A stretch of DNA of 64,000 bases from Halorientalis persicus (lineage in GTDB: Archaea > Halobacteriota > Halobacteria > Halobacteriales > Haloarculaceae). Shown here in pieces: positions 11,891 to 26,893 of the stretch (positions are counted from its first letter, which is position 1; every line of letters starts with the position of its first letter). The position numbers and the translations under genes were made by a program. The stretch covers positions 124,001-188,000 of the forward strand of contig NZ_FOCX01000002.1 in assembly GCF_900110215.1 (NCBI RefSeq), written 5' to 3'. Below the pieces are notes generated by a model. The model was given only the letters and a program-made list of their open reading frames with translations, was not told the origin of the DNA and did no database searches.

Positions 11891-12970
11891 TTACATCAGA
11901 TCGTCGAGTTCGTCGTTCTGGAAGGCGTCTCTGGCGCTCTCCGTGGACTCTTCTTGCTGTTGGCTGGCCTCGCGGGCCCGATCCATGAACTCCTGGACGC
12001 GCTGGGAGCGTTCGACCCCGCCCAGCAGGACCAGCGCGGCGATGCGGTCGCTACTGAGTGGGAAGTCCCCACCCCGGACTTCGAGGCTACCGGTCTCCTC
12101 TTCGAGCCACTTGCGGGCGCGTTCGACACCTTTGCGGGCGATGCGGTCGGGGTGGCCGGCGATCACGAGGAGGGCTTTGTCGGCTTCGACTGCCTGGGGG
12201 AGGGAGGTGCCGGTGAGGAGGGCTTTCCGCGCGGTGGAGGTGATGGCGTTGATGTTCTCGCCGGCGTCCTCGTCGGCCAGCGCGGAGGCGTATCCCAGCG
12301 AGGCGATGCCGCCGTTTTTGAGCGTGTTGATGATCTCGCTGGAGTCGACGACCGATTCGCCGACGCCTTCGACGATCTCACCGGCCGCCAACAGCAGGCC
12401 GACGCGCTCGGCGATGCGGTCGTTGATGGCCGAGAAGCCCTCCTCGATGCTCTCGTCGGAGGTCTTCCAGGCGTCGTTGTCGATAACCAGCACGGAGTCG
12501 GCCTCTCTCGTGAAGGTCTTGAGCGAGCGGCCGGCGTTGGCCTGGTAGATCGCACCCTCGTCGCGGCCGGGGAGGACCGCGAGGCCGTAGATCGGCATCG
12601 TGTACACACGCTTGAGTTCGCGGGCAAGCATGGGTGCGCCGCCGCTTCCGGTCCCGCCGCCCAGACCGGCGACGACGAAGACGGCGTCGGCCTGGCTGGT
12701 GACACGGCCGTCGAGTTCGTCCATGACCTCGGTGGCCTCGGCCTGCATGATCTCGGCCCCGAGCTCGTTGTCGCCGCCGACGCCGTGTCCTTTCACTCTG
12801 TCCTGTCCGATCAGCATCGTGTCGATGTCGATATTCTGCAGGTCCGCACGCGCCGTGTTGACCGCGAAGGCACCCTGGACCGCCTCGAATCCGCGGTCGT
12901 AGTCGAATTCCGCGAGGGCCTGCGCGATCTTCCCTCCTGCTTGTCCGACACCAATCAGGACGACTTTCAT
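11891..12970 (-). CDS. cetZ: CetZ-family tubulin-like GTPase
   Basis: Tubulin/FtsZ-superfamily cytoskeletal GTPase; CetZ proteins affect haloarchaeal cell shape rather than division. It starts directly with the first strand and P-loop-like KVVLIGVGQAGGKIAQAL. The tubulin signature GLGGGTGSGG is at residues 103-112, and the T7-like NDRIAER region follows. The C-terminus is acidic and Gln/Glu-rich, ending NDELDDLM. At 359 residues it is typical. ATG 12970 is chosen over an upstream start because the fold begins there. It is divergent from the pilus-like cluster, with a TATA-like TTGATTA about 27 bp upstream. Confidence 0.93.
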   Translation of the reverse strand: MKVVLIGVGQAGGKIAQALAEFDYDRGFEAVQGAFAVNTARADLQNIDIDTMLIGQDRVKGHGVGGDNELGAEIMQAEATEVMDELDGRVTSQADAVFVVAGLGGGTGSGGAPMLARELKRVYTMPIYGLAVLPGRDEGAIYQANAGRSLKTFTREADSVLVIDNDAWKTSDESIEEGFSAINDRIAERVGLLLAAGEIVEGVGESVVDSSEIINTLKNGGIASLGYASALADEDAGENINAITSTARKALLTGTSLPQAVEADKALLVIAGHPDRIARKGVERARKWLEEETGSLEVRGGDFPLSSDRIAALVLLGGVERSQRVQEFMDRAREASQQQEESTESARDAFQNDELDDLM

Positions 12971-13081: not shown

Positions 13082-13675
13082 ATGGACGGAGACGACGTGG
13101 AGGCACGGCTCGAAGCGGTCGAACGGACACTCGCCGACGGGGACGCGGACCTGACGGCAGTCGCCGAGGCCGCCGAACGCGAGCACGAACTCGACGAACT
13201 GCAAGCGCGACTCGACGACCTCGAATCCCGGCTCACGAACCTGGCCGCCAGTGTCCAGGCGGTCCGGGGGTACGTCGGCAACGTGCGGACCGTCAACCGC
13301 GACGTGGAACGGCGAGCCGACGCCGCCCTCGCCAAGGTCGAGGAGCTGGAGCGCCACAGACCCGACCGTGGCCGTCGAGAATCCGACGGCGACACCGCCG
13401 CGTCGAGCCAGCCGACGCCGGATCGAGCGCGGACCGACGGGCGGGACGACGATCCACCCGAGTCACCCGGAGACATCGCGCGGCGGATCACCGGCCGAGA
13501 CGACGAGCAGCGAGACCGACGGCGAGCGCGTGATGAGCGTCGGCGTGACGGCAGGGGACGCAAACGAGAGGGAGAGAGACGGCGACAGTCACGGGACCGG
13601 AGTGGGGGCCCCGCCGGATCGAACGCGGGCGACGACGAGGACGGACTCCTCTCGGGCCTGCGCGACGCGTTCTGA
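13082..13675 (+). CDS. coiled-coil protein heading the tad-like cluster
   Basis: 197 residues. The first 95 form a long coiled coil (ARLEAVERTL, HELDELQARLDDLESRLTNLAA) and the rest is a highly charged, disordered tail (RDRRRARDERRRDGRGRKREG) ending GLLSGLRDAF. I recall it as the haloarchaeal DUF7310 family, found with secretion ATPases. TATA-like TTCAAATA lies 24-31 bp before the ATG. The stop overlaps the next start by one base, so it heads the operon. Perhaps a cytoplasmic scaffold for the ATPase; inference only. Confidence 0.75.
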   Translation: MDGDDVEARLEAVERTLADGDADLTAVAEAAEREHELDELQARLDDLESRLTNLAASVQAVRGYVGNVRTVNRDVERRADAALAKVEELERHRPDRGRRESDGDTAASSQPTPDRARTDGRDDDPPESPGDIARRITGRDDEQRDRRRARDERRRDGRGRKREGERRRQSRDRSGGPAGSNAGDDEDGLLSGLRDAF

Positions 13676-14169
13676 TGCTCCGAGCGGTCGTGGCGGTCGT
13701 CCTCGCGTCGGCGCTGCTCGCGGCCAGTCTGCCGGGGATCGAACTCGCGGCCCGCGAGCGCAGCGAGGCGACGCTCACAGCCGAGGCCGACCGGCTCCGG
13801 ACGGCGATCGTGGACCTCCGACAGCGCGAGAGTGCCGTCGGTTCGGGAGCGGGCGCGCGCCGGGTCGTCGCGGTCGAACTCCCTGCACGGTCCCGAACGG
13901 CCGCCGGCGAGGCCACGCTCGCACTCGGCGGCGTCCCCGGGCAGGTGCGCTCGGACGGCCAGTCCGCCGTCGACCTCGCGTGGCAGGTCGGCGACGAGAC
14001 GGTCACGACGCGGCGACTCCCCGGCAGCCAGGTAGTTCACTATCCTGACGGGCGTGTCCGCGACGAGCCGCTGGTTATAGAATCGCCGGGTTCCCACCGG
14101 ATCGCGCTGACGCGCATCGAGCACGACGGCGAGACACTGATCGGCGTCCGGCGGCTCCCGGAGGTTTAA
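13675..14169 (+). CDS. N-terminally anchored secretion-cluster protein (DUF7311-like)
   Basis: 164 residues. MLRAVVAVVLASALLAASLPGIELAARERSE gives a single N-terminal hydrophobic helix preceded by RA, like a short class III (prepilin-type) signal. A helical stretch (LTAEADRLRTAIVDLRQRE) and a beta-rich outer domain (LALGGVPGQVRSD..., VVHYPDGRVRDEPLV) follow. It lies between the coiled-coil protein and the ATPase. Probably exposed outside the membrane; function unknown. Confidence 0.75.
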   Translation: MLRAVVAVVLASALLAASLPGIELAARERSEATLTAEADRLRTAIVDLRQRESAVGSGAGARRVVAVELPARSRTAAGEATLALGGVPGQVRSDGQSAVDLAWQVGDETVTTRRLPGSQVVHYPDGRVRDEPLVIESPGSHRIALTRIEHDGETLIGVRRLPEV

Positions 14170-14184
14170 GTCCGGAAACGGGAC
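14165..14184 (+). promoter_or_regulatory. internal promoter of the ATPase gene, shared motif
   Basis: TTTAAGTCCGGAAACGGGAC. The TTAAG core is exactly 30 bp before ATG 14196 and overlaps the end of the preceding gene. A nearly identical block at 17858-17877 has the same 30-bp spacing to ATG 17889, arguing for a real, co-regulated promoter pair within the cluster. Confidence 0.55.
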
Positions 14185-14195
14185 GAGCGACGGCC

Positions 14196-16103
14196 ATGGG
14201 TGTACTCAGTCGGGTCCGAGGCAGTGGCGACGAAACGGGCTGTCGCTGTTCGCCGTCGTTCGACGGCGACCGACTAGTGGTCGACGCCGACGACTGTCGG
14301 GGGGAGGGACGACTCGCGGCGGAAGCGGCCTGTCGGGCCGCGGTCGTCGACGCGCTCCGCGAGCGGGACGCCGACGCGATCTGTACGCGAGCCGCAGGGG
14401 TCGAACGGGCCTACGAGGGGACGGCGGCGGCCGCGCTCGTGGCCGCCGGCCGGTTCGCCGACGCGGCCGCGTTCCACGACGAGGCCATCGCGGATCGGGC
14501 ACTGCGCGATCCGCTCGGAGCCGCACGGGCCGCCATGGGACGTGCAGGCCCAGTCGCGAGGCTAGCGGCGGAGACTGGACTGGCCGAGGGAGCCGCACAG
14601 GCCGACGGGTACGAGGATCTACTCGCGCCCGCGGTCGGACCGACCATCAGCCGGTCGCGGGTGCGGCTCCAGCCGCCCACGTCGGCCAGGTTCGCGTCGC
14701 GGCGTGAACTGGAGACGGGGGCAGTCGTGCGGATCTACGGCCAGCCCGATCGCGAGCGGCGGACGTACCATCTCGAACCGGTCGAGCACGGATTCGGACC
14801 GGCCGCGACCGAGCGGCTTGTCGCGGCCTACGACCGGCTTGCCAGCGGTGCGGTGACCGGTGGCGAGCGTGCGCCCGGGCGCGCAGTCCGGCGCGTCGTC
14901 GACGACGGCGACGGGATGGACACGACAGTGCGGGAACTCGAACGAGTCCTCGAAAAACACACGCAGGGCTACGGTGTCGTGACTGATCTGTTCGCCGACG
15001 AGCGCGTCTCGGACGTATTCGTGACCGCGCCAGCGTCGGACAACCGGATCCGCGTCCGCGTCGACGGCGAGACGCTGACGACGAACGTCCGGCTCACCGA
15101 GGGCGGCATCGAGGCGCTGGCCTCACGCTTCCGACGAGAGAGCGGACGGGCCTTCTCACGAGCCAGTCCGGCGCTCGACGCGACGGCGACGGTTTCCGGC
15201 CGCCGCGTCCGTGTCGCCGGCGTCACCGAACCGGTCAGCGAGGGCGTCGCCTTCGCCTTTCGTGCACACGAGCGGGAAGCCTGGACGCTCCCGGCGCTGG
15301 TCACCAACGGCACGCTCACCGCCCAAGCGGCCGCGCTCCTCTCGCTGGCAGTCGAACGCGACGCCGCGACGTTGCTCGCGGGGACCCGCGGTGCCGGGAA
15401 GACGACGATGCTCGGGGCCCTGCTGTGGGAGCTGCCCGCCGCAACCAGAACCGTCGTCATCGAGGACACGCCGGAGTTGCCGGTCGCGCAGTTACAGGAC
15501 GCCGGCCGGGACGTGCAGTCGCTCCGGACCGGCGACGAGGGCTCGGGGGAACTCGCCCCGGCGGAAGCGCTCCACACGGCGCTCAGACTCGGCGAGGGCG
15601 CGCTGGTCGTCGGTGAAGTTCGGGGCGAGGAAGCCGGCGTCCTCTACGAGGCGATGCGGGTCGGCGCGAGCGGCAGTGCGGTACTGGGGACGATCCACGG
15701 CGACGGCGGCGAAGCCGTCCGCGAGCGGGTCGTCACCGATCTGGGCGTCCCCGAGTCCGCCTTCGGCGCGACGGACCTGCTGGTGACGCTCGAACCCTTC
15801 GAGTCGTCGGCCGGTCGCGCTCGCCGGGTCAAACGGATCGAGGAGGTCGTCTGCGCGGACGGCGTGGGCTTCGAACCGCTGTTCGAGCTGGACGACGGTG
15901 AACTGACTTCGACCGGACGGATCGAACGCGGGAACAGCCGCCTGGTCGACGGGCTGGCCCGCTCCACGGAGCGTTACACAGCGGTCAGGGAGTGTCTCCG
16001 GGACCGCACGGACTGGCTGGCAGACCTCGCAGACAGCGGCCGCACCGATCCCGAGACGGTCCGTCGAGCGCACGCCGAGCGGCGAACGGGGCCGACAGCA
16101 TGA
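14196..16103 (+). CDS. Tad/GspE-type secretion ATPase
   Basis: Hexameric cytoplasmic ATPase that powers pilus-like assembly or secretion. The C-terminal half is the VirB11/TadA fold: GYGVVTDLFADERVSDVFV domain start near residue 260, Walker A GTRGAGKTT at 396-404, an Asp box VIEDTPEL, Walker B ALVVGEVRGEEAG and the His box GTIHGDGG. The first 250 residues are a family-specific domain with a Cys-containing start (CRCSPSF...). 635 residues. ATGA overlap with the TadC-like partner supports an ATPase/platform pair. It is distinct from the archaellum ArlI by context. Confidence 0.9.
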   Translation: MGVLSRVRGSGDETGCRCSPSFDGDRLVVDADDCRGEGRLAAEAACRAAVVDALRERDADAICTRAAGVERAYEGTAAAALVAAGRFADAAAFHDEAIADRALRDPLGAARAAMGRAGPVARLAAETGLAEGAAQADGYEDLLAPAVGPTISRSRVRLQPPTSARFASRRELETGAVVRIYGQPDRERRTYHLEPVEHGFGPAATERLVAAYDRLASGAVTGGERAPGRAVRRVVDDGDGMDTTVRELERVLEKHTQGYGVVTDLFADERVSDVFVTAPASDNRIRVRVDGETLTTNVRLTEGGIEALASRFRRESGRAFSRASPALDATATVSGRRVRVAGVTEPVSEGVAFAFRAHEREAWTLPALVTNGTLTAQAAALLSLAVERDAATLLAGTRGAGKTTMLGALLWELPAATRTVVIEDTPELPVAQLQDAGRDVQSLRTGDEGSGELAPAEALHTALRLGEGALVVGEVRGEEAGVLYEAMRVGASGSAVLGTIHGDGGEAVRERVVTDLGVPESAFGATDLLVTLEPFESSAGRARRVKRIEEVVCADGVGFEPLFELDDGELTSTGRIERGNSRLVDGLARSTERYTAVRECLRDRTDWLADLADSGRTDPETVRRAHAERRTGPTA

Positions 16104-17854
16104 GGGTGGGTAGAGAGCAGGCGATCCGACTGCTCGCCCGGTGCTATCCGTGGGAAGTCGAGGGGAGCGCCGACCTCGACCGGGCGCTCGGGTTTCTCGG
16201 CTCGGACCTGTCCCCCGAAACCGTCGTCCGGGCGGGCTACGGGGCGGCACTGCTGTGTGTCCCGGTAATCGTCCTCGCTGGGCTTCTCGTGCCTGCCGCG
16301 ACGATGCCGCTCGTCCTCGGGTGTGGCGCGGTGGGCGCGCTGGCGGTCGCCCACGCGGTCCACACCGCTCCTCACGCGCTCGCGACGGCCCGGCGGACCC
16401 GGGCGCTCGGGGAAGCACCGGCGCTGGTGAGCCGTGCCGTCCTCCGGATGCGGGTGACGCCAGCGACGGAGACGGCGGCGGCCTTCGCGGCCGAGACGGG
16501 ACAGGGGCCGCTCGCCGACAGTCTCGGCGAGCACGTGCGTCGTGCCGCCGGATCCGCAGGGTCGGGCTTTCCCTCGTTTACTGCCGAGTGGGACGAGTGG
16601 TTCCCTGCCCTTCGACGCGCGCTCTTGCTCGTCGAGTCCGCGGGCACCGCGGCCGACGGCGAGCGCGAGCGCGCCCTCGATCGCGGGATGGCGGCCGTGC
16701 TGGACGGCACCCGGGACCGGATGGCCGAGTTCGCCGCGGGCCTGCAGGGGCCGGCGACGGGACTGTACGCCTTCGGCGTCTTGCTCCCGCTCGCGCTGGT
16801 CGCGATGTTGCCCGCCGTCCGGACGACGGGCAGGTCCGTCCCGCTCACTGCCGTCGTGGTGCTGTACGACCTCGCCCTGCCAGCCGCCCTCGTGGCCGCG
16901 AGCGCGTGGCTCCTGATCCGCCGGCCGGTCACCTTCCCGCCGCCGTCGGTCGGACGGGAGCATCCCGACGTGCCGAGCCGACGGTGGCCGGCACCGGCCG
17001 GCGGACTGGTGGCCGGCGGGGCCGGGTGGCTCCTGGCAAGCAGGCTCGTCGCGCCGTGGACGGGTCCCCTCGCGGCCACCGGCTCGGCCTGTGGCGTGGC
17101 GCTCGTGGTCTACTACCGACCGATCACGGACATCCGCGAGCGGGTCCGGGCCGTCGAGGACGGGCTCGCCGACGCCCTCTACCAGATCGGGCGACGTGTC
17201 GAGGAGGGCGAAGCCGTCGAGAGTGCCGTCGCGACCGCCGCCGAGGAGGTGGCCGACCCGACCGGCGCAGTCCTGCGGGAGGCGGCCCAGCGACAGCGCC
17301 GCCTCAAAGTCGGCGTCCGTGAGGCCTTCCTCGGCGAACACGGCGCGCTGGCCGACATCCCGAGTCCGCGAGCACGGAGTACCGCCACACTCCTGGCACT
17401 GGCCGCGAGCGAAGGCCGGCCAGCAGGCGGCGCGATCGTCGCGATGGCCGACAACGTCGAGGAACTCGCGGCGGTCGAACGCGACGCGCGCCACGAAATC
17501 GGCACCGTGACCGGAACGCTGGCCAACACCGCCGCACTGTTCGGGCCACTCGTGGCGGGTGCGACCGTCGCACTCGCCGCCGGGATGGACGTTGGTGGGA
17601 CGGTCGCGGTGGGCGCCGTAAGAGCCACAGAGACGGCGGGCACAGCGGGAGTGGCGTCCGGATCGTCGACCGCCGGCCTCGGACTGGCCGTCGGCGCGTA
17701 CGCGCTCGTCCTCGCGGCGATCCTGACGACGCTCTCGACTGGACTGGCCCACGGCCTCGACCGCGCGCTGGTGGGCTACCGAGTGGGGTGGGCACTGCTG
17801 GTCGCGACCGCAACCTATCTGGCCGCGATCCACGCCGTGGGCCTGTTCGTCTGA
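16100..17854 (+). CDS. TadC/PilC-type inner-membrane platform protein (T2SSF)
   Basis: 584 residues with multiple membrane helices in two halves, each preceded by a T2SSF cytoplasmic helical domain (around GSDLSPETVVRAGYGA... and RVRAVEDGLADALYQIGRRVEEGEAVESAV). The second has the characteristic LADALYQIGRRVEEGE and, later, GTVTGTLANTAALFGPLVAG. It anchors the ATPase and the nascent pilus in the membrane. ATG 16100 overlaps the ATPase stop by four bases and starts MRVGREQAIRLLARCYPWE. Duplicated T2SSF domains are normal for archaeal PilC/TadC proteins. Confidence 0.88.
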   Translation: MRVGREQAIRLLARCYPWEVEGSADLDRALGFLGSDLSPETVVRAGYGAALLCVPVIVLAGLLVPAATMPLVLGCGAVGALAVAHAVHTAPHALATARRTRALGEAPALVSRAVLRMRVTPATETAAAFAAETGQGPLADSLGEHVRRAAGSAGSGFPSFTAEWDEWFPALRRALLLVESAGTAADGERERALDRGMAAVLDGTRDRMAEFAAGLQGPATGLYAFGVLLPLALVAMLPAVRTTGRSVPLTAVVVLYDLALPAALVAASAWLLIRRPVTFPPPSVGREHPDVPSRRWPAPAGGLVAGGAGWLLASRLVAPWTGPLAATGSACGVALVVYYRPITDIRERVRAVEDGLADALYQIGRRVEEGEAVESAVATAAEEVADPTGAVLREAAQRQRRLKVGVREAFLGEHGALADIPSPRARSTATLLALAASEGRPAGGAIVAMADNVEELAAVERDARHEIGTVTGTLANTAALFGPLVAGATVALAAGMDVGGTVAVGAVRATETAGTAGVASGSSTAGLGLAVGAYALVLAAILTTLSTGLAHGLDRALVGYRVGWALLVATATYLAAIHAVGLFV

Positions 17855-17857
17855 ACG

Positions 17858-17877
17858 CTTAAGTACCGGAACGGGAC
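17858..17877 (+). promoter_or_regulatory. internal promoter before the pseudopilin genes, shared motif
   Basis: CTTAAGTACCGGAACGGGAC, with TTAAG 30 bp before ATG 17889. It matches the block before the ATPase gene in sequence and spacing, suggesting the pseudopilin segment can be transcribed separately yet under the same control. Confidence 0.55.
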
Positions 17878-17888
17878 CACCCTCGCCC

Positions 17889-18359
17889 ATGTTCGACGCA
17901 CCGATCGACACCTGGTATCTCTGGCTCGGCGTCGCGACGGCGAGCGCGCTCGCGTTCGGCGTCGCGGTCGCGCTCCCGACGACCGTGCCGCCGGACGCCC
18001 AGCGGGCGGCGGCGACGGTCGACGCCGTGGCGACCAGCCCGCACAACGCGACGGGCGAACACAGCGTGGACGCGACGGCGGTCGAGCTCGGCAGTCGCCG
18101 TATCGCACTGCGCAACGACGGTGGCACCGCACACGCAGCCTTCGCGTACGGTCCCGTCACGCCGGTCCGGAACGGGACGGATCTGGCGGCGGTTCTCCGG
18201 GGCCACGCGCCAGCGGCTGTGTTTCCGAACGCCACGGCGTTCCGGGCTGCGGCGGCGGAGGCACGGAACCGGACACGCGCGTGGCGAGAGACCGACGGTC
18301 GGCTCGTCGCTCGACGCGTCACCTGGGAGGGGGTCGATGTCACGCTCGTCGGCGCGTAG
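17889..18359 (+). CDS. membrane-anchored cluster protein (DUF7283-like)
   Basis: 156 residues: N-terminal helix WYLWLGVATASALAFGVAVALP followed by an extracytoplasmic domain with several N-x-T/S sequons (HNATG, RNGTD, PNATA, RNRTR), fitting an N-glycosylated surface protein. No clear prepilin cleavage site. It overlaps the next gene by 23 bp. From memory this is the family DUF7283, known only from such clusters. Confidence 0.7.
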   Translation: MFDAPIDTWYLWLGVATASALAFGVAVALPTTVPPDAQRAAATVDAVATSPHNATGEHSVDATAVELGSRRIALRNDGGTAHAAFAYGPVTPVRNGTDLAAVLRGHAPAAVFPNATAFRAAAAEARNRTRAWRETDGRLVARRVTWEGVDVTLVGA

Positions 18360-18726
18360 GGGGCAGGTCGAGCCGGTCGCGGCCATCGTCGCGGTGTTCG
18401 CGCTCGGCGTCGGGCTGACGATCTACGCGGGCGCGGTCGACGACGCGCTCCCGGGCACCGAGCCCCGAAACGTCGCACAGCCCACCCTATCGGCGGTCGA
18501 GGACGCCATCGAGACCGACGGTGTGGTTCGCCCGACTCGGCTGACTCGCGTGACGGCCGCGGCACCCGCGGGCCGTCGACTGAACGTGACGCTCACCGCT
18601 GGCGATCGACGGTGGACCCGCGGCGCGTCGCCGCCCGCATCGGCACAGCGAGCGAGGACCAGCGTGAGCGTCGATCGCGGGCCCGGGCAGGTCGAACCGG
18701 GGCGGCTCACAGTGAGGGTGTGGTGA
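18337..18726 (+). CDS. pilin-like protein with class III signal (DUF7285-like)
   Basis: 129 residues. The start MSRSSARRGQVEPVAAIVAV has RRG/QVEP followed by a long hydrophobic helix, which closely resembles archaellin and PilA-type signals processed by PibD between G and Q. A short beta-rich domain follows. This makes it the best candidate for a pilus subunit in the cluster. The start overlaps the previous gene by 23 bp and the stop shares a base with the next ATG. Confidence 0.72.
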   Translation: MSRSSARRGQVEPVAAIVAVFALGVGLTIYAGAVDDALPGTEPRNVAQPTLSAVEDAIETDGVVRPTRLTRVTAAAPAGRRLNVTLTAGDRRWTRGASPPASAQRARTSVSVDRGPGQVEPGRLTVRVW

Positions 18727-19625
18727 TGCGGGCGATCAGCACGGTGCTGGACGCCGCGATCTTCCTCCTGCTCGTCGGGGCCGCGGTCGGCACCCTCGCG
18801 CTCGGGACGAGTCCGCCGCCGACGGCCACCGCCGACGCGGCCGACGGCGTGGCCGACACGCTCACGACGAGTACGGCGACGGTCCAGTACACGCTCGCCC
18901 CGGGCGCACGGCGAGCCTCGTCGCGGGTCGTCGAGTTTCCGATCACGGACGGGCCGGCGTTCCAGCGGACCGCTCACGGAACGCTCGCGAGCCACCTTTC
19001 GACGGCTGCTCTCGGCAGTCTCGCCGTCCGTGACCATCGTGTCACTCACACGCGAGCGGACTACCAGCGCGCGGTGGCGAACGCGACGCGAAACCTGACT
19101 CGGGGGCGGCGGCACCTCGCGCAGATCCGCGCACGCTGGAGTCCCTATCCCGGCGCACCGATCGAGGGCGCGTTCACCGTCGGTCCGACGCCGCCACCGG
19201 ACGAGACCGTCCACGCCGAGACGGTCGTCGTCGCGAGTGGCTTGCCGTCGGCCCGCGGGCCTGCGCGGCGCGTGACGCCGGGAAACGCGACGAACGTGTC
19301 GTTCGGTCGAGTGGCATCGGTCGTCGCCCGGCGGATCGTTCGAGGGCTGTTCCCGCCGGATCGGACCCGGAGTGCGCTGCTCGGTGACTACCCGGTAGAG
19401 GGGCTCGTGACCTACCGGTACGAGCGACTCGGGCGGTTCTTCGGCGCGAACGTGACGACCCCGGCAGTCGCCGATAACGCCACGAGAGCCAACGAGAGAC
19501 TCACGACGGGGCTGGGCGAGCGACTGGCCGCGGATATGCGCACTCGCTTCCGGTCGCCCCGGGACGCCGCCGACGCGATATCCGTCGGACAGGTTCGGAT
19601 CACCGTCCGGACGTGGTCACCGTGA
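18726..19625 (+). CDS. pseudopilin-like protein (DUF7284-like)
   Basis: 299 residues beginning MRAISTVLDAAIFLLLVGAA. RA/IS followed by a hydrophobic helix resembles haloarchaeal prepilin N-termini (RA-VSPV type). The large extracytoplasmic part carries many sequons (NATRNLT, NATNVS, NVTT, NATR). Tandem overlaps at both ends (1 and 4 bp) show tight translational coupling. Perhaps a minor pilin. Confidence 0.7.
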   Translation: MRAISTVLDAAIFLLLVGAAVGTLALGTSPPPTATADAADGVADTLTTSTATVQYTLAPGARRASSRVVEFPITDGPAFQRTAHGTLASHLSTAALGSLAVRDHRVTHTRADYQRAVANATRNLTRGRRHLAQIRARWSPYPGAPIEGAFTVGPTPPPDETVHAETVVVASGLPSARGPARRVTPGNATNVSFGRVASVVARRIVRGLFPPDRTRSALLGDYPVEGLVTYRYERLGRFFGANVTTPAVADNATRANERLTTGLGERLAADMRTRFRSPRDAADAISVGQVRITVRTWSP

Positions 19626-22600
19626 GCCGGACGACTCGCCTGCGGGACGACGACCGCGGGTGGCTCCCCTTCGCGCTGGTCGGCGTCGTCCTCCTCGTCG
19701 GGAGTGTGGCACTGTTCGTGGGGCTCCAACCGGATCGGCCGGCCGCGGAACCGACCACGGACGTGGCCGTCGAGCGCGTCGCCGGCGAGACACAGACCGC
19801 GATCCGGACGGCGGTCGTCGAGGCCGGCGACGCCGCAGCGCGGGATCCGGCTCTCGACCGCGCAAACACGTCGACTGGTCAGGTGCTCTCCCACGAGACG
19901 CCGTTCCGGGACGCGCTGCGCATCCGGATCTACCTGCGAGCCCGGGCCCGCCTCGACGACGTGGCCGTCACGCGCAACGACGTGACGGCGACCGCCTCGC
20001 TCCCTGGGACGCCGAACGCCAGCAGTCTGGGCGCGGCGATGGAGCGAGTCTACGTCGAAGCGATCGACGACAATCGGACGCGGCTCCGGGTGCGTGTCGC
20101 GAACGTCACCGTGACCGCCCGACGGGGAAACAGGCCGGTCGTCCAGCGGACGGTGAGTCCGACGGTCGTGGTCCGGACACCGGTGCTGGCCGTCCACGAC
20201 CGGGTCGACCGCTTCGAGCAGCGGCTGAACGCCGGGATCGGACGGCCGGGCCTGACCACCCGGTTGACGAAGCGGCTGTACGGCGTGGTCTGGGCGCGTG
20301 GCTACGCGCAGTACAGTTCCGGTGGCGTCGCCATCGAGAACGTCCTCGCGAACCGCCACGTCGAGATCACGACCAACGGCGCGATCCTGCGCGAACAGCG
20401 CCACCTGTTCGGCCGGAGCGACGCAACCGGCCGCCAAGCGATGGCCCGGGCGATGGTCGGCGTCGCTACGACCGACCTGTTGCGCGGCGCGGACGTCCCT
20501 GGTGGCTACGTCAAGACGCTGTTCGAGGGTGGGCGACCCGGGCCGAGCCCGAACGTCCCCGCCGGAGTCCCGTCGCTGGACACGGCCACCGGAGCACCGG
20601 ACCCCGGGGACCGGATGACCGTCAGCGTCGACGGCACCGCCGACCGGGGCCTGGCCAGGGCCGCGGCACCGGTGAGTCTCCGGTCGCTCGTCCGGTCGGT
20701 CTACAGCGCCGAGGTCGAGACGATCAGCGACGTGGAGCGGACCAGCGGGTCGGTGCCGAGTTGCTGGGCCATCCAGCCGGAGGGCTGGTGGCGACTCGAC
20801 TACGAGAGCATCGACGGGAGCGACCCAGTCGTGAAAGGGGCGACCGAGGTGCGTCCGCAGATCCCGGACGGCTGGCACGCGTTCGAGTCGTACGGTCGCC
20901 GGGTGAGACAGGAGCGAACGAGATACTGCCACTGGGTCGACGGCAACGAGACGGCTGTCACACAGACGAGTGACACGTTCCGCTTCGACGTGGGGGTCAC
21001 GCTGGTCGGCCGCCACGCCGAGACCGCGTACGCGCCGGCCAACGGGATCGAGACTGTTCACGACGCCGGAGAAGGGCCGCTCGACGGGCCGAACCTGGCG
21101 AACGTCAGTCGGCGAGCGCGATTGCGGCTCGTCGAAGGACGGGGCGGTCCGGACGCGCTCGCGAAGACGGCAGTCCGGAAGGGCGAGAACATCACAGGTA
21201 TTCGGACCGTTCGCGGGCGGATTCCCGACGGGATTCGGCGGTGGCTGCTGACGGACCTGGTCGGCTTCCGCGACCGTGTCGCGAACGTCTCCGTAACCGT
21301 CGAACGCGGCCGCGCGAGCACGTTCGAGGCGAACCCAGCGGCCGAACTGGATCGGGAACTCGCCGGACTGGTCGACCCTCCGTCCGAGTACGGGAGCGTC
21401 GCCGAGAAAGCGCGGTTCGCCGCACGGGGCGTGTACGTCGAACGGACCCGAAAGCTCCTGGAGCGACGGGCCGAGAAACAGACCCAGCGTCGACGGAGCC
21501 TGGGCGACGCAGTCGAGAGTGTCGGTGGCGGGTCGACGGACCTGCTCGGGACGGCACTGGAAAACCGGGCCGGCGTCGGAGCCGAGGCCGCCGACGCTGG
21601 AATCGACGGCGTCGACGTCACCGCCGTCGAGAGCTCGCCAGCGTACCTGACGGTCGCCGAGGTCGGGCCGAAATACGCCGACTCGTTGCCCGAGGCCCAT
21701 CGCATCAGTCCGCTGGCGGCGAGAAACGTCAATCTGGTCGCGTCACCGCACGGCGACGTTGCGGACACCCTGCTACAGAGTGTGGACCTCGGATCGACGG
21801 TCGACCTCCGGACGGCCGCTCGGACGCTCCACGCGACGCGGAGCGCCACCGAACTGACGACGGAAAACGAGACGCTCGACCGCACACTCGACCGGAAATC
21901 GGAGTCACTCGACGGAGCGGTCCGACGGAAGGTCGTGGACGCCCGGCAACTGCTCCGGGACCGGCTGGCCGATTTCGGGGTCGGCGACGACGAGAGCGAA
22001 CGCCGCCGCATCGTCGGTGACGCGCTCGCAGAGTGGGACGGACCGGGAGCAACGGCCCTCGCGTTGACGAACGGGTCGGCCGCGGCGGCGGTCGCCGACC
22101 GGGCGGTCGAGCGCAACGAGACCAGGCGCGACAGTCTGCGTGCGACGCTCCAGGTGCTCTTGCACGCGACTGCGACCGGCAAAGACACGCGAATCTCGCG
22201 GGCGAAGATCAGCACGACCGCCGAATTGCTCCGGCAGAAAGTGAAGTTGCGGCTGGCGGCCGGCATCGAGAACGCGACCCAGGAGGGTGCGAGCCGACTC
22301 GCGGACGGGCTCGACGAGCGACTGGCGCGGTCGGTGAACAGAGTCCCCGCTGGCCTTCCTATCGTCCCGGCCGGGCCGGCGTGGTGGGTGACGGTGAACG
22401 GTTGGCTCGTGGACGTACGGGGCGGATACGACCGCTTCGCGGTCCGAGCGGAAACCGGCGCGGCCGGGAGTCCCGGTGGCTCGCTCACGTACGTCCGGGA
22501 TGGGGGTGTCGCGAGCGTCGACTACGACGGCGACGGCGAGGCCGAACGGCTGGGACACGCCGACCGGATCGCCTTCGAGTCCCAGACCGGCGTCGTCATC

Positions 22601-22744
22601 GCGGTCCCGCCGGGTCCACAGGGCGTCGGCGACAAGAACGGGAACGTGGACGAGCGATCCGCGAGCTGGACGGACTGGCAGGGCGTCCAGTCCGGTCAGA
22701 ACGCCGGTCCAGCAGTGCCGGACACCTGGCCCGACCGTCGGTAA
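19622..22744 (+). CDS. giant membrane-anchored cluster protein (DUF7286-like)
   Basis: 1040 residues from GTG 19622, which overlaps the previous stop by four bases (GTGA). The N-terminus MSRTTRLRDDDRGWLPFALV is a charged leader, RG/WLPF and one helix, so it could be a class III-like anchor on an unusually large protein. The remainder is extracytoplasmic, with long charged helices (VYVERTRKLLERRAEKQTQ), sequons and a conserved-looking end (VNGWLVDVRGGYDRF, YDGDGEAERLGHADR). Known, from memory, only as the haloarchaeal DUF7286 family beside TadA/TadC homologues. Possibly a tip adhesin or extracellular stalk; inference. Confidence 0.7.
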   Translation: MSRTTRLRDDDRGWLPFALVGVVLLVGSVALFVGLQPDRPAAEPTTDVAVERVAGETQTAIRTAVVEAGDAAARDPALDRANTSTGQVLSHETPFRDALRIRIYLRARARLDDVAVTRNDVTATASLPGTPNASSLGAAMERVYVEAIDDNRTRLRVRVANVTVTARRGNRPVVQRTVSPTVVVRTPVLAVHDRVDRFEQRLNAGIGRPGLTTRLTKRLYGVVWARGYAQYSSGGVAIENVLANRHVEITTNGAILREQRHLFGRSDATGRQAMARAMVGVATTDLLRGADVPGGYVKTLFEGGRPGPSPNVPAGVPSLDTATGAPDPGDRMTVSVDGTADRGLARAAAPVSLRSLVRSVYSAEVETISDVERTSGSVPSCWAIQPEGWWRLDYESIDGSDPVVKGATEVRPQIPDGWHAFESYGRRVRQERTRYCHWVDGNETAVTQTSDTFRFDVGVTLVGRHAETAYAPANGIETVHDAGEGPLDGPNLANVSRRARLRLVEGRGGPDALAKTAVRKGENITGIRTVRGRIPDGIRRWLLTDLVGFRDRVANVSVTVERGRASTFEANPAAELDRELAGLVDPPSEYGSVAEKARFAARGVYVERTRKLLERRAEKQTQRRRSLGDAVESVGGGSTDLLGTALENRAGVGAEAADAGIDGVDVTAVESSPAYLTVAEVGPKYADSLPEAHRISPLAARNVNLVASPHGDVADTLLQSVDLGSTVDLRTAARTLHATRSATELTTENETLDRTLDRKSESLDGAVRRKVVDARQLLRDRLADFGVGDDESERRRIVGDALAEWDGPGATALALTNGSAAAAVADRAVERNETRRDSLRATLQVLLHATATGKDTRISRAKISTTAELLRQKVKLRLAAGIENATQEGASRLADGLDERLARSVNRVPAGLPIVPAGPAWWVTVNGWLVDVRGGYDRFAVRAETGAAGSPGGSLTYVRDGGVASVDYDGDGEAERLGHADRIAFESQTGVVIAVPPGPQGVGDKNGNVDERSASWTDWQGVQSGQNAGPAVPDTWPDRR

Positions 22745-22849: not shown

Positions 22850-24016
22850 ATGACACGCTCCGTCTGGCTGAAAGCCGACGACGAAGTCGGCGACTGGGAG
22901 ACACGCAAACGCCGCATCACGGCCGGCCTGGAAGCCGGCGTGGACTGGGTGCTGGTCGACGAGTCCGACGTGGAACGCGTCCGCGAACTCGGCGAAGTCA
23001 ACGTCGCCGCCTTCTCGAACGGCGACGTCCACGTCATGGAAGCCGAAGAAGACGAGAACGACGCCGACGCCGTCGTCGTCGGCAAAGACGGCGAGGGCGA
23101 CGGCACCGTCGATCTACCGACCGACTTCTCCGGCTCTGCCGATCTCTCCTCGCTTCGCTCGAACGGCGACAGCCCGCAGGGCGGCTACGTTCGCATCCTG
23201 AACGAGGACTACGAGGCCTTCGCCCAGGCGGTCGCCACCGAGGCCGAGTACACCCTCGTCATCGGCGAGGACTGGCAGATCATCCCCCTGGAAAACCTCA
23301 TCGCCCGCATCGGCGAGGAGACGGACCTCATCGCCGGCGTCCAGACGGCCGAAGAGGCCCGCACCGCCTTCGAGACGCTGGAACTGGGCTCGGATGGCGT
23401 CCTGCTCGACACCGACGACCCCGACGAAATTCGGAAAACGGTGGAGGTCCGCGACGAGAGCCAGCGCGAGTCCGTCGACCTGCAGTGGGCCGAGGTCACG
23501 GCCATCGAACAGACCGGCTCCGCGGATCGCGTCTGTGTCGACACGGGCAATCTGATGGAACACGACGAGGGGATGCTCGTCGGCTCCATGAGTCGGGGCC
23601 TCTTTTTCGTCCACGCCGAGACGGCCGAATCGCCCTACGTCGCCTCCCGCCCCTTCCGGGTCAACGCCGGCGCGGTCCACGCCTACGTCCGCACGCCAGA
23701 CGGCGGCACGAAGTACCTCTCGGAACTGCGCAGCGGCGACGAAGTGCAGGTCGTCGACACGGACGGGAACACCCGCGAGGCCATCGTCGGCCGCGTGAAA
23801 ATCGAGAAACGACCGATGTTCCGGGTCCAGGCCGAGACGGCGGAGGGCGACCGCATCGAGACCCTGCTCCAGAACGCCGAGACGATCAAAGTCGCCACCA
23901 AGGACGGCCGGAAAGCGGTCACCGACCTGGAAGCGGGCGACGAACTGAAAGTGTTCTACGAGGACACCGCCCGCCACTTCGGCGAGGCCGTCGACGAGAG
24001 CATCATCGAGAAGTAG
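22850..24016 (+). CDS. aroB': 3-dehydroquinate synthase II
   Basis: NAD-dependent enzyme of the archaeal shikimate route: converts 2-amino-3,7-dideoxy-D-threo-hept-6-ulosonate to 3-dehydroquinate. The 388-residue length and MTRSVWLKADDEVGDWETRK start are characteristic. Also diagnostic are the internal VDTGNLMEHDEGMLVGSMSRGLFFVHAE and SPYVASRPFRVNAGAVHAYV. It supplies AroD, encoded 2 kb away on the other strand. Its substrate is the product of AroA', encoded at 51885-52688. Confidence 0.95.
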   Translation: MTRSVWLKADDEVGDWETRKRRITAGLEAGVDWVLVDESDVERVRELGEVNVAAFSNGDVHVMEAEEDENDADAVVVGKDGEGDGTVDLPTDFSGSADLSSLRSNGDSPQGGYVRILNEDYEAFAQAVATEAEYTLVIGEDWQIIPLENLIARIGEETDLIAGVQTAEEARTAFETLELGSDGVLLDTDDPDEIRKTVEVRDESQRESVDLQWAEVTAIEQTGSADRVCVDTGNLMEHDEGMLVGSMSRGLFFVHAETAESPYVASRPFRVNAGAVHAYVRTPDGGTKYLSELRSGDEVQVVDTDGNTREAIVGRVKIEKRPMFRVQAETAEGDRIETLLQNAETIKVATKDGRKAVTDLEAGDELKVFYEDTARHFGEAVDESIIEK

Positions 24017-26162: not shown

Positions 26163-26852
26163 TCAGTCTTCGGTCGGCTTCGACTCCAGCTCGGAGACGA
26201 GTCGTCGCAGGGTCGCGAGGTCGTACTGGCCGGGCGCGGTCGCGTCGGCTGGATCGACGGGTGCGTAGCCGATCTTCGACCCGTACAGCGGCGCGACGGC
26301 CCGGGAGTGGCGGCCGGGTTCGCCCATCGCCATCGTCGCGACGCGGTCGCCACCGGCCACGGAGGCCCGGGTCGCCGCCAGCAGTTCGAGCACGTCGTCG
26401 GTCGAGCGGGCCGTCACCGCCAGCTTGCCCACGTCGCCGTACTCGCAGGCCCGGTCGAGCAACTGCCGGAGCTTGGGCGGCTCGGGCGTCTTCGCGAAGT
26501 CGTGGGTCGAGACGATGACGGCGGCTCCGTGATCGCGGGCGTGGTCGATCACGCGCCCGCCGTCACCGTCGGACGCGGTCGTGAGTTCCACGTCGACGGC
26601 CTCGACTTTGGGGTGTTCGACGGCGGTACAGAGCGCGTCGAGGCGGGCGGCATCGTCGGCGGCCTCCCCGCCCTCGAAGGCCGCGCGGTTGGTCACGATC
26701 AGCGGGAGCGTGCCGTCGTAGTCGGCGAGTGCCGCGAGCGGGTCCGTCGCGAGGTCCAACCGGAACTCGACGGCGTCTGCGTGCTCGCGGGCGGCGGGCT
26801 CGTCCCCCAGATCGGCCGTGGCCGCCGCCAGCACGAACGACTCGAAGTCCAT
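26163..26852 (-). CDS. aroD: 3-dehydroquinate dehydratase, type I
   Basis: Shikimate-pathway enzyme removing water from 3-dehydroquinate through a Schiff base. The (beta/alpha)8 fold shows VEFRLDLA near residue 28, VIVSTHDF with the catalytic His, and GKLAVTARS with the Schiff-base Lys, then ATMAMGEPGRHSR and GSKIGYAPV. 229 residues. ATG 26852 (MDFESFVLAAATADL) begins the first strand; the 13 codons upstream look spurious. Confidence 0.93.
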   Translation of the reverse strand: MDFESFVLAAATADLGDEPAAREHADAVEFRLDLATDPLAALADYDGTLPLIVTNRAAFEGGEAADDAARLDALCTAVEHPKVEAVDVELTTASDGDGGRVIDHARDHGAAVIVSTHDFAKTPEPPKLRQLLDRACEYGDVGKLAVTARSTDDVLELLAATRASVAGGDRVATMAMGEPGRHSRAVAPLYGSKIGYAPVDPADATAPGQYDLATLRRLVSELESKPTED

Positions 26853-26893
26853 ACCTCCGGTCAGTCCGAGTCCGAACAAAAACCTGTCCACTT

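What the first reader, a model, noticed from the sequence alone, without database searches (positions are those of the whole stretch)
13082..22744. Compact nine-gene Tad-like secretion/pilus cluster with pseudopilins including a 1040-residue member
Genes overlap or nearly touch from a coiled-coil protein through a Tad/GspE ATPase and a TadC/PilC platform to four membrane-anchored proteins. The products starting at 18337, 18726 and 19622 begin RG/QVEP, RA/ISTV and RG/WLPF before a hydrophobic helix, as in PibD substrates. A one-domain pilin, a mid-sized one and a 1040-residue one side by side would be unusual. I recognise the DUF-like families only from such clusters, so the machine may be an undescribed archaeal surface or secretion system.
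Basis: partly seen in the sequence, partly recalled or inferred. Interest (0 to 1): 0.72.

Follow-up and report, generated by a model that had tools for sequence, protein, structure and literature searches.

The report
Haloarchaeal PilB2/PilC2 type IV pilus operon
This is an eight-gene operon for a pilus-like surface machine that most salt-loving archaea carry next to a tubulin-like gene; it was already predicted by computer but its job is unknown, and a second copy in the same genome carries what looks like a toxin and its antidote on the machine's giant subunit.

Summary
In order: coiled coil DUF7310, DUF7311, PilB/TadA-type ATPase, TadC/PilC, DUF7283, DUF7285, DUF7284 and the 1040-residue DUF7286. 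DUF7285 keeps an R[GA] site in 80/80 relatives. DUF7286 keeps it in 78/80, with an atypical basic or aromatic +1 residue. DUF7284 lost it in 44/79. The gene order is nearly invariant; DUF7286 occurs in 130/195 genomes of the order.

The cluster is not undescribed. The divergent neighbour is CetZ2. The ATPase has a four-Cys N-terminus and groups with Cys-rich methanogen ATPases. This is the pilB2/pilC2 regulon next to cetZ2 (Brown & Duggin 2023), which fits subclade 4F of Makarova et al. 2016. Its role is unknown. I infer a short pseudopilus presenting the DUF7286 ectodomain, which matches no solved fold.

New lead, outside the window: a second copy ~175 kb away carries a longer DUF7286. Its C-terminal extension diverges sharply (body 92% identity, extension 42%). 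The extension recurs on unrelated secreted proteins, and in 8 of 9 cases a homologous small soluble gene follows, like a toxin–immunity pair. The window copy lacks it.

The parts
11891..12970 (-). cetZ2 (tubulin-like GTPase), divergently transcribed neighbour
   Evidence: CetZ_C and Tubulin Pfam hits. Best solved match is 4B45 (494 bits) over 4B46 (345 bits); PMC9856176 identifies 4B45 as CetZ2 and 4B46 as CetZ1. The start is the in-frame ATG; the ORF listing begins at an upstream TTG.
13082..13675 (+). DUF7310 coiled-coil protein, cytoplasmic; probably the coiled-coil component (arCOG07564) of subclade 4F
   Evidence: PF23991 E 4.4e-29; no transmembrane segment. Found in 72/80 named loci, several of which are contig-truncated.
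13675..14169 (+). DUF7311, single N-terminal transmembrane segment, no R[GA] class III site
   Evidence: PF23993 E 6.6e-34; TM 4-22; N-terminal comparison.
14196..16103 (+). PilB2-type assembly ATPase with a four-cysteine N-terminal region
   Evidence: T2SSE 1.7e-19; 2OAP, CpaF and FlaI in PDB. The cluster clade with methanogen ATPases has support 100/99; cysteine pattern.
16100..17854 (+). TadC/PilC2 membrane platform
   Evidence: T2SSF in 16/18 family members; six hydrophobic segments.
17889..18359 (+). DUF7283, single N-terminal transmembrane segment, no class III site
   Evidence: PF23954 E 6.3e-54; conserved DxWYxWxG N-terminus.
18337..18726 (+). DUF7285, small pilin-like protein with class III site RRG/QVEP
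   Evidence: PF23956 E 2.4e-37; R[GA] site in 80/80 homologues.
18726..19625 (+). DUF7284, mid-sized pilin-like protein, MRA/ISTV
   Evidence: PF23955 E 4e-92. Model pLDDT 90 with no PDB fold match; site present in 35/79 homologues.
19622..22744 (+). DUF7286, 1040-aa membrane-anchored surface protein, DRG/WLPF; alternative GTG start at 19613
   Evidence: PF23957 E 6.9e-302. Model pLDDT 78, no PDB fold or sequence match. In 130/195 genomes of the order.

Best explanation
The cluster is the haloarchaeal pilB2/pilC2 type IV pilus-like regulon next to cetZ2 and fits subclade 4F. Shown: an assembly ATPase, a TadC/PilC platform, five single-TM proteins and a coiled-coil protein in one tight, highly conserved operon. 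Inferred: the single Peptidase_A24 enzyme of the genome cleaves DUF7285 and, where a leader exists, DUF7284. Inferred: ATP hydrolysis by PilB2 through PilC2 stacks the hydrophobic helices of DUF7285, DUF7284 and DUF7286 into a short pseudopilus or pilus. Inferred: this presents the ~1000-residue DUF7286 ectodomain, as tip or surface contact protein, beyond the S-layer. Inferred: a PilA-family pilin encoded elsewhere may supply the shaft. Inferred: DUF7311, DUF7283 and DUF7310 are accessory parts, and CetZ2 may position the machine.
For: Domain identities. Operon order D7310-D7311-ATPase-TadC-D7283-D7285-D7284-D7286 in nearly all of 80 named loci: D7283/85/84/86 in 80, TadC in 77, ATPase in 75, CetZ in 58, and in a 40-locus survey. 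CetZ is CetZ2 (with PMC9856176). The ATPase clade is separate from ArlI and the other PilBs and has the Cys-containing N-terminus described for subclade 4F. PMC4858521 reports the same FtsZ/CetZ neighbour and a coiled-coil partner for halobacterial 4F loci. A prepilin-peptidase homologue exists in the genome, as do 16 PilA-type (PF07790) matches, 15 over the cut-off, all outside the cluster. In methanogens DUF7285-DUF7284-DUF7286 stay together in the same order (L079, L080, L094), so they behave as one module.
Against: No major pilin is encoded in the cluster. DUF7284 and DUF7286 have a short TM helix followed by a low-confidence linker rather than a long pilin helix, and their folds match no solved pilin. 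The +1 residue of DUF7286 is atypical for PibD. DUF7284 dispensed with its leader in 44/79 homologues. The arCOG numbers of the published subclade 4F could not be matched directly; assignment rests on neighbourhood, cysteine pattern and tree.
Confidence: 0.62

Rival explanations
1. A type II-secretion-like exporter: a pseudopilus built from DUF7285/7284/7286 works as a piston that pushes folded proteins through the S-layer.
For: Several pseudopilin-like proteins of graded size, no major pilin in the operon, and a large non-pilin ectodomain.
Against: None of the eight products looks like cargo, secretin or S-layer gate; neighbours outside the operon were profiled only for CetZ and DHQS. DUF7286 itself is far larger than known pseudopilins (my knowledge).
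Confidence: 0.17
2. A contact-dependent effector-display machine: DUF7286 is the carrier whose C-terminus can be loaded with exchangeable effector domains, as in the second copy in this genome.
For: Second-copy DUF7286 paralogues share 92% identity over the 854-aa body and 86% over the C-terminal domain, but 42% over the extension. Orphan cassettes keep the junction, and one carries a metallo-beta-lactamase fold. The extension is shared with unrelated secreted proteins and is followed by one immunity-like family in 8 of 9 cases.
Against: The window copy and nearly all of the 80 named copies end at or soon after the conserved C-terminal domain with no such extension, and no immunity-like gene is found near the canonical loci tested, L039 and L041. 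Toxicity is untested.
Confidence: 0.13
3. An adhesion pilus whose shaft is PilA-type pilins encoded in trans, with the cluster proteins as minor pilins and adhesin (a more specific form of the best explanation).
For: 16 PF07790 matches elsewhere in the genome; PMC6491452 shows that PilB paralogues can share pilin sets.
Against: Deletion of pilB3-C3 alone removes visible pili in H. volcanii (PMC4371748), so PilB2 makes no obvious pili under those conditions.
Confidence: 0.3

Closest known systems
pilB2/pilC2 regulon next to cetZ2 in Haloferacales and Halobacteriales (Brown & Duggin 2023, PMC9856176)
   Same: CetZ2 neighbour, one ATPase, one PilC, several predicted pilins and one predicted surface protein, conserved order.
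   Different: Nothing found in the window that departs from it. The arCOG identifiers could not be matched directly.
Archaeal type IV pilus subclade 4F (Makarova et al. 2016, PMC4858521)
   Same: Cys-containing N-terminal region on the ATPase, halobacterial coiled-coil partner, CetZ-family neighbour, relatives in methanogens.
   Different: The predicted PilA-family major pilin of that model is not encoded here (that paper itself says it is mostly a stand-alone gene).
Bacterial Tad (Flp) pilus
   Same: ATPase scores best among NCBIfam models to TadA (127 bits, below cut-off); TadC-like platform; several small R[GA]-led membrane proteins.
   Different: No Flp pilin, TadV, TadB, RcpA secretin or TadZ gene among the eight products.
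Haloferax volcanii PilB3/PilC3-PilA adhesion pili
   Same: Homologous ATPase and platform.
   Different: Different ATPase clade by Makarova's scheme; the pilB3-C3 operon has no pilin genes (PMC6491452).

Membership tests
Type IV filament superfamily | PilB/TadA-family assembly ATPase | tested here: met
   T2SSE 1.7e-19; 2OAP, CpaF, FlaI.
Type IV filament superfamily | PilC/TadC platform protein | tested here: met
   T2SSF in 16 of 18 family members, best 6.4e-7; window member alone only E 0.33.
Type IV filament superfamily | Class III leader before a hydrophobic helix on the subunits | tested here: inconclusive
   DUF7285 80/80. DUF7284 35/79. DUF7286 78/80 but mostly with R at +1. DUF7283 and DUF7311 have none.
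Type IV filament superfamily | Pilin fold of the subunits | tested here: inconclusive
   DUF7284 (pLDDT 90) and DUF7286 (pLDDT 78) match no solved structure, pilin or other, at E<0.001, but minor pilins vary widely; DUF7285, the best candidate, was not modelled.
Type IV filament superfamily | Prepilin peptidase in the genome | tested here: met
   One Peptidase_A24 gene over cut-off.
pilB2/pilC2 regulon next to cetZ2 | Divergent or adjacent cetZ2 | tested here: met
   4B45 494 bits versus 4B46 345 bits; CetZ in 58 of 80 loci.
pilB2/pilC2 regulon next to cetZ2 | ATPase belongs to arCOG01818 | not testable with these tools
   No arCOG library at hand.
Archaeal T4P subclade 4F | Cysteine-rich N-terminal region on the ATPase | tested here: met
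   Four or more N-terminal Cys in essentially all complete cluster ATPases and in L195, L199, L204, few or none in most other PilBs.
Archaeal T4P subclade 4F | ATPase monophyletic with methanogen 4F ATPases | tested here: inconclusive
   46-row clade, 100/99, contains three Cys-rich methanogen ATPases, but these are not the paper's named reference sequences, and the tree tool warned of long branches.
Archaeal T4P subclade 4F | Coiled-coil cytoplasmic partner (arCOG07564) | tested here: inconclusive
   DUF7310 is a coiled coil in the same place; arCOG identity not testable.
Bacterial Tad (Flp) system | Flp pilin and TadB/TadZ/RcpA partners | tested here: not met
   None among the eight gene products.

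The most novel reading that the evidence does not exclude
PilB2-type (subclade 4F) machines are contact-dependent display or delivery systems: DUF7286 is a pilin-anchored carrier whose C-terminal domain can be loaded with exchangeable effector domains paired with downstream immunity genes, a delivery mode I did not find among those listed for polymorphic toxins (PMC3482391). The window copy would be the unloaded, ancestral state.
Probability: 0.25. Interest if true: 0.75.

Novelty: already known. Interest (0 to 1): 0.42.

Why it matters
Most sampled haloarchaea keep this machine, yet its role is reported as unknown. The genes are now tied to named Pfam families, to CetZ2 and to a genetically tractable relative (Haloferax), so deletion tests are straightforward. 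If the second-copy toxin-like cassettes hold up, they would point to a type IV pilus-like route for antagonism between archaea.

Tried and rejected
(1) 'Undescribed system': rejected after CetZ2 identification and PMC9856176/PMC4858521. (2) Tad membership: rejected, no Tad partners. (3) PDB matches for DUF7286 by sequence and fold and for DUF7284 by fold: none. (4) Profile-profile homology among DUF7285, DUF7284, DUF7286, DUF7283 and DUF7311: no credible hit. (5) My first TadC query was one base out of frame; redone. (6) A literature search for the DUF names found nothing. (7) The regex count was unreliable and was replaced. (8) NCBIfam and Pfam gave no name for the second-copy extension domain. 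(9) H. volcanii itself was not among the 80 loci returned, so no HVO locus tag is given for the orthologue.

Full report
What is there. The span 13082-22744 holds eight + strand genes in a tight operon: DUF7310 (13082-13675), DUF7311 (13675-14169), an assembly ATPase (14196-16103), TadC/PilC (16100-17854), DUF7283 (17889-18359), DUF7285 (18337-18726), DUF7284 (18726-19625) and DUF7286 (19622 or 19613 to 22744). The only gaps between genes are 26 and 34 bases; the other junctions overlap. Upstream, on the other strand, is a CetZ gene. Downstream is 3-dehydroquinate synthase II, found with the operon in only 3 of 80 named loci.

The machine parts. The ATPase matches T2SSE (E 1.7e-19), and its best solved relatives are archaeal GspE (2OAP), CpaF and FlaI. 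It is not the archaellum ATPase: the genome has another gene that passes the ArlI equivalog cut-off (886 bits) and sits elsewhere in the tree. The platform protein is weak alone but matches T2SSF in 16 of 18 relatives, best 6.4e-7. The genome has one Peptidase_A24 enzyme and 16 PilA-type matches, 15 over the cut-off, none in this cluster.

The leader sites. In 80 named relatives DUF7285 always has R[GA] at the site. DUF7286 has it in 78 of 80, but +1 is R in 72, and W, H, L or P in the rest. DUF7284 has it in 35 of 79; the other 44 start M-T-S-T-V-L-D, M-N-A-A-[VI]-D or similar directly and come from genera I place in Haloferacaceae (my knowledge). R[GA] occurs at about 2% of positions in these proteins, so the conserved placement is not chance. 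By the class III motif as I remember it, DUF7285 and the window's DUF7284 conform and DUF7286 does not. DUF7283 and DUF7311 are single-TM proteins without a site.

Structures. AlphaFold gave DUF7284 pLDDT 90 and DUF7286 pLDDT 78. Both have a short N-terminal helix, a low-confidence linker and a large ectodomain. Foldseek against the PDB gave nothing at E<0.001 for either. So they are pilin-like by leader and context, not by a recognised fold.

Conservation. DUF7286 is in 130 of 195 genomes of the order and in 76 of 295 of the phylum sample, including other classes, among the controls Methanosarcina acetivorans, where mainly the C-terminal part matches. In 80 named haloarchaeal loci DUF7283, 7285, 7284 and 7286 are all present in 80, TadC in 77, ATPase in 75, DUF7310 and DUF7311 in 72, CetZ in 58, mostly in one order. 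Because those loci were fetched with a DUF7286 query, its own count is by construction. In several non-haloarchaeal members of the phylum DUF7285-DUF7284-DUF7286 keep their order with no ATPase within the fetched stretch.

Identity with a described system. The window CetZ matches 4B45 at 494 bits and 4B46 at 345. PMC9856176 names these as H. volcanii CetZ2 and CetZ1 and reports that cetZ2 lies next to a pilB2/pilC2 type IV pilus regulon in Haloferacales and Halobacteriales, with a mobile-looking distribution and unknown role. PMC4858521 describes subclade 4F: ATPases with a Cys-rich N-terminus, a halobacterial coiled-coil partner and an FtsZ-family neighbour. The window ATPase has the CxC...C...C pattern, as do its orthologues and the more distant ATPases L195, L199 and L204. 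All fall in one clade with support 100/99 (the tree tool warned of long branches). I conclude it is this known, uncharacterised system. The arCOG numbers could not be checked.

How it probably works. See Best explanation; only the gene content and conservation are shown, the assembly model is inferred from homologous systems. Background: five pil operons plus the archaellum are reported in H. volcanii (six pilBC pairs in PMC7921747), pilB3-C3 alone accounts for visible pili, and three of the five operons were not detectably transcribed in microarrays (PMC4371748).

A lead outside the window. The same contig, ~175 kb away, has a second operon of this type (L078, L235; contig positions ~303.5-324 kb). 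Its DUF7286 paralogue has 1331 residues, with a ~350-residue extension after the conserved C-terminal domain. Between this genome and sister species G098 the body is 92.2% identical over 854 residues, the C-terminal domain 86.1%, the extension 42.5%; ATPase and TadC are 94.0% and 90.5%. Two orphan ORFs in this genome keep the junction and C-terminal domain but then differ: one continues into a ComEC-like metallo-beta-lactamase fold, the other into a related extension. The extension family also sits on unrelated haloarchaeal proteins with TSP3 repeats or a VWA domain and on shorter ones. In 8 of 9 such places, counting the three DUF7286-linked ones, the next gene downstream is a soluble protein of one family (iterated profile E about 1e-34 to 1e-55; three tandem copies in L270; none found in L266). 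The layout resembles polymorphic toxin-immunity systems, which PMC3482391 calls rare in archaea; activity is untested. The window copy has no extension.

Scores. The cluster itself is already known in silico, so novelty is 'already known'. Interest is moderate because the role is open and now testable, and because of the second-copy lead.

Noticed in passing
L078:3944-7939 (-) and L078:2859-3896 (-); contig C51 ~307.4-312.4 kb, outside the window: Second PilB2-type operon whose DUF7286 paralogue has a fast-diverging C-terminal extension followed by an immunity-like soluble gene.
   Followed up: partly
L078:11465-13159 (-): Orphan ORF: DUF7286 C-terminal domain joined to a ComEC-like metallo-beta-lactamase fold, no N-terminal anchor.
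   Followed up: partly
L235:11265-12911 (-) and L235:10505-11191 (-): Orphan DUF7286 C-terminal domain with an extension related to that of the full-length paralogue, plus its own immunity-like gene.
   Followed up: partly
L266-L271: The same extension domain at the C-terminus of unrelated haloarchaeal secreted or short proteins, with the same small downstream gene family in five of six. No Pfam or NCBIfam name.
   Followed up: partly
DUF7284 in L095-L098, L106, L107, L109, L110, L115, L117-L119, L121-L125 and others: DUF7284 lost its leader in 44 of 79 homologues; translation starts at what would be the mature N-terminus, suggesting a peptidase-independent subunit.
   Followed up: partly
L082:15519-18798, L088:3-3772: Outside haloarchaea, tandem partial copies of the DUF7286 C-terminal part lie near or without a full-length gene.
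   Followed up: no
window 14196-14400 and orthologues: Conserved CxC...C...C pattern at the ATPase N-terminus, a possible metal site shared with more distant relatives.
   Followed up: partly
window 22850-24016 and 26163-26891: 3-dehydroquinate synthase II and type I 3-dehydroquinase lie close together downstream of the operon.
   Followed up: no
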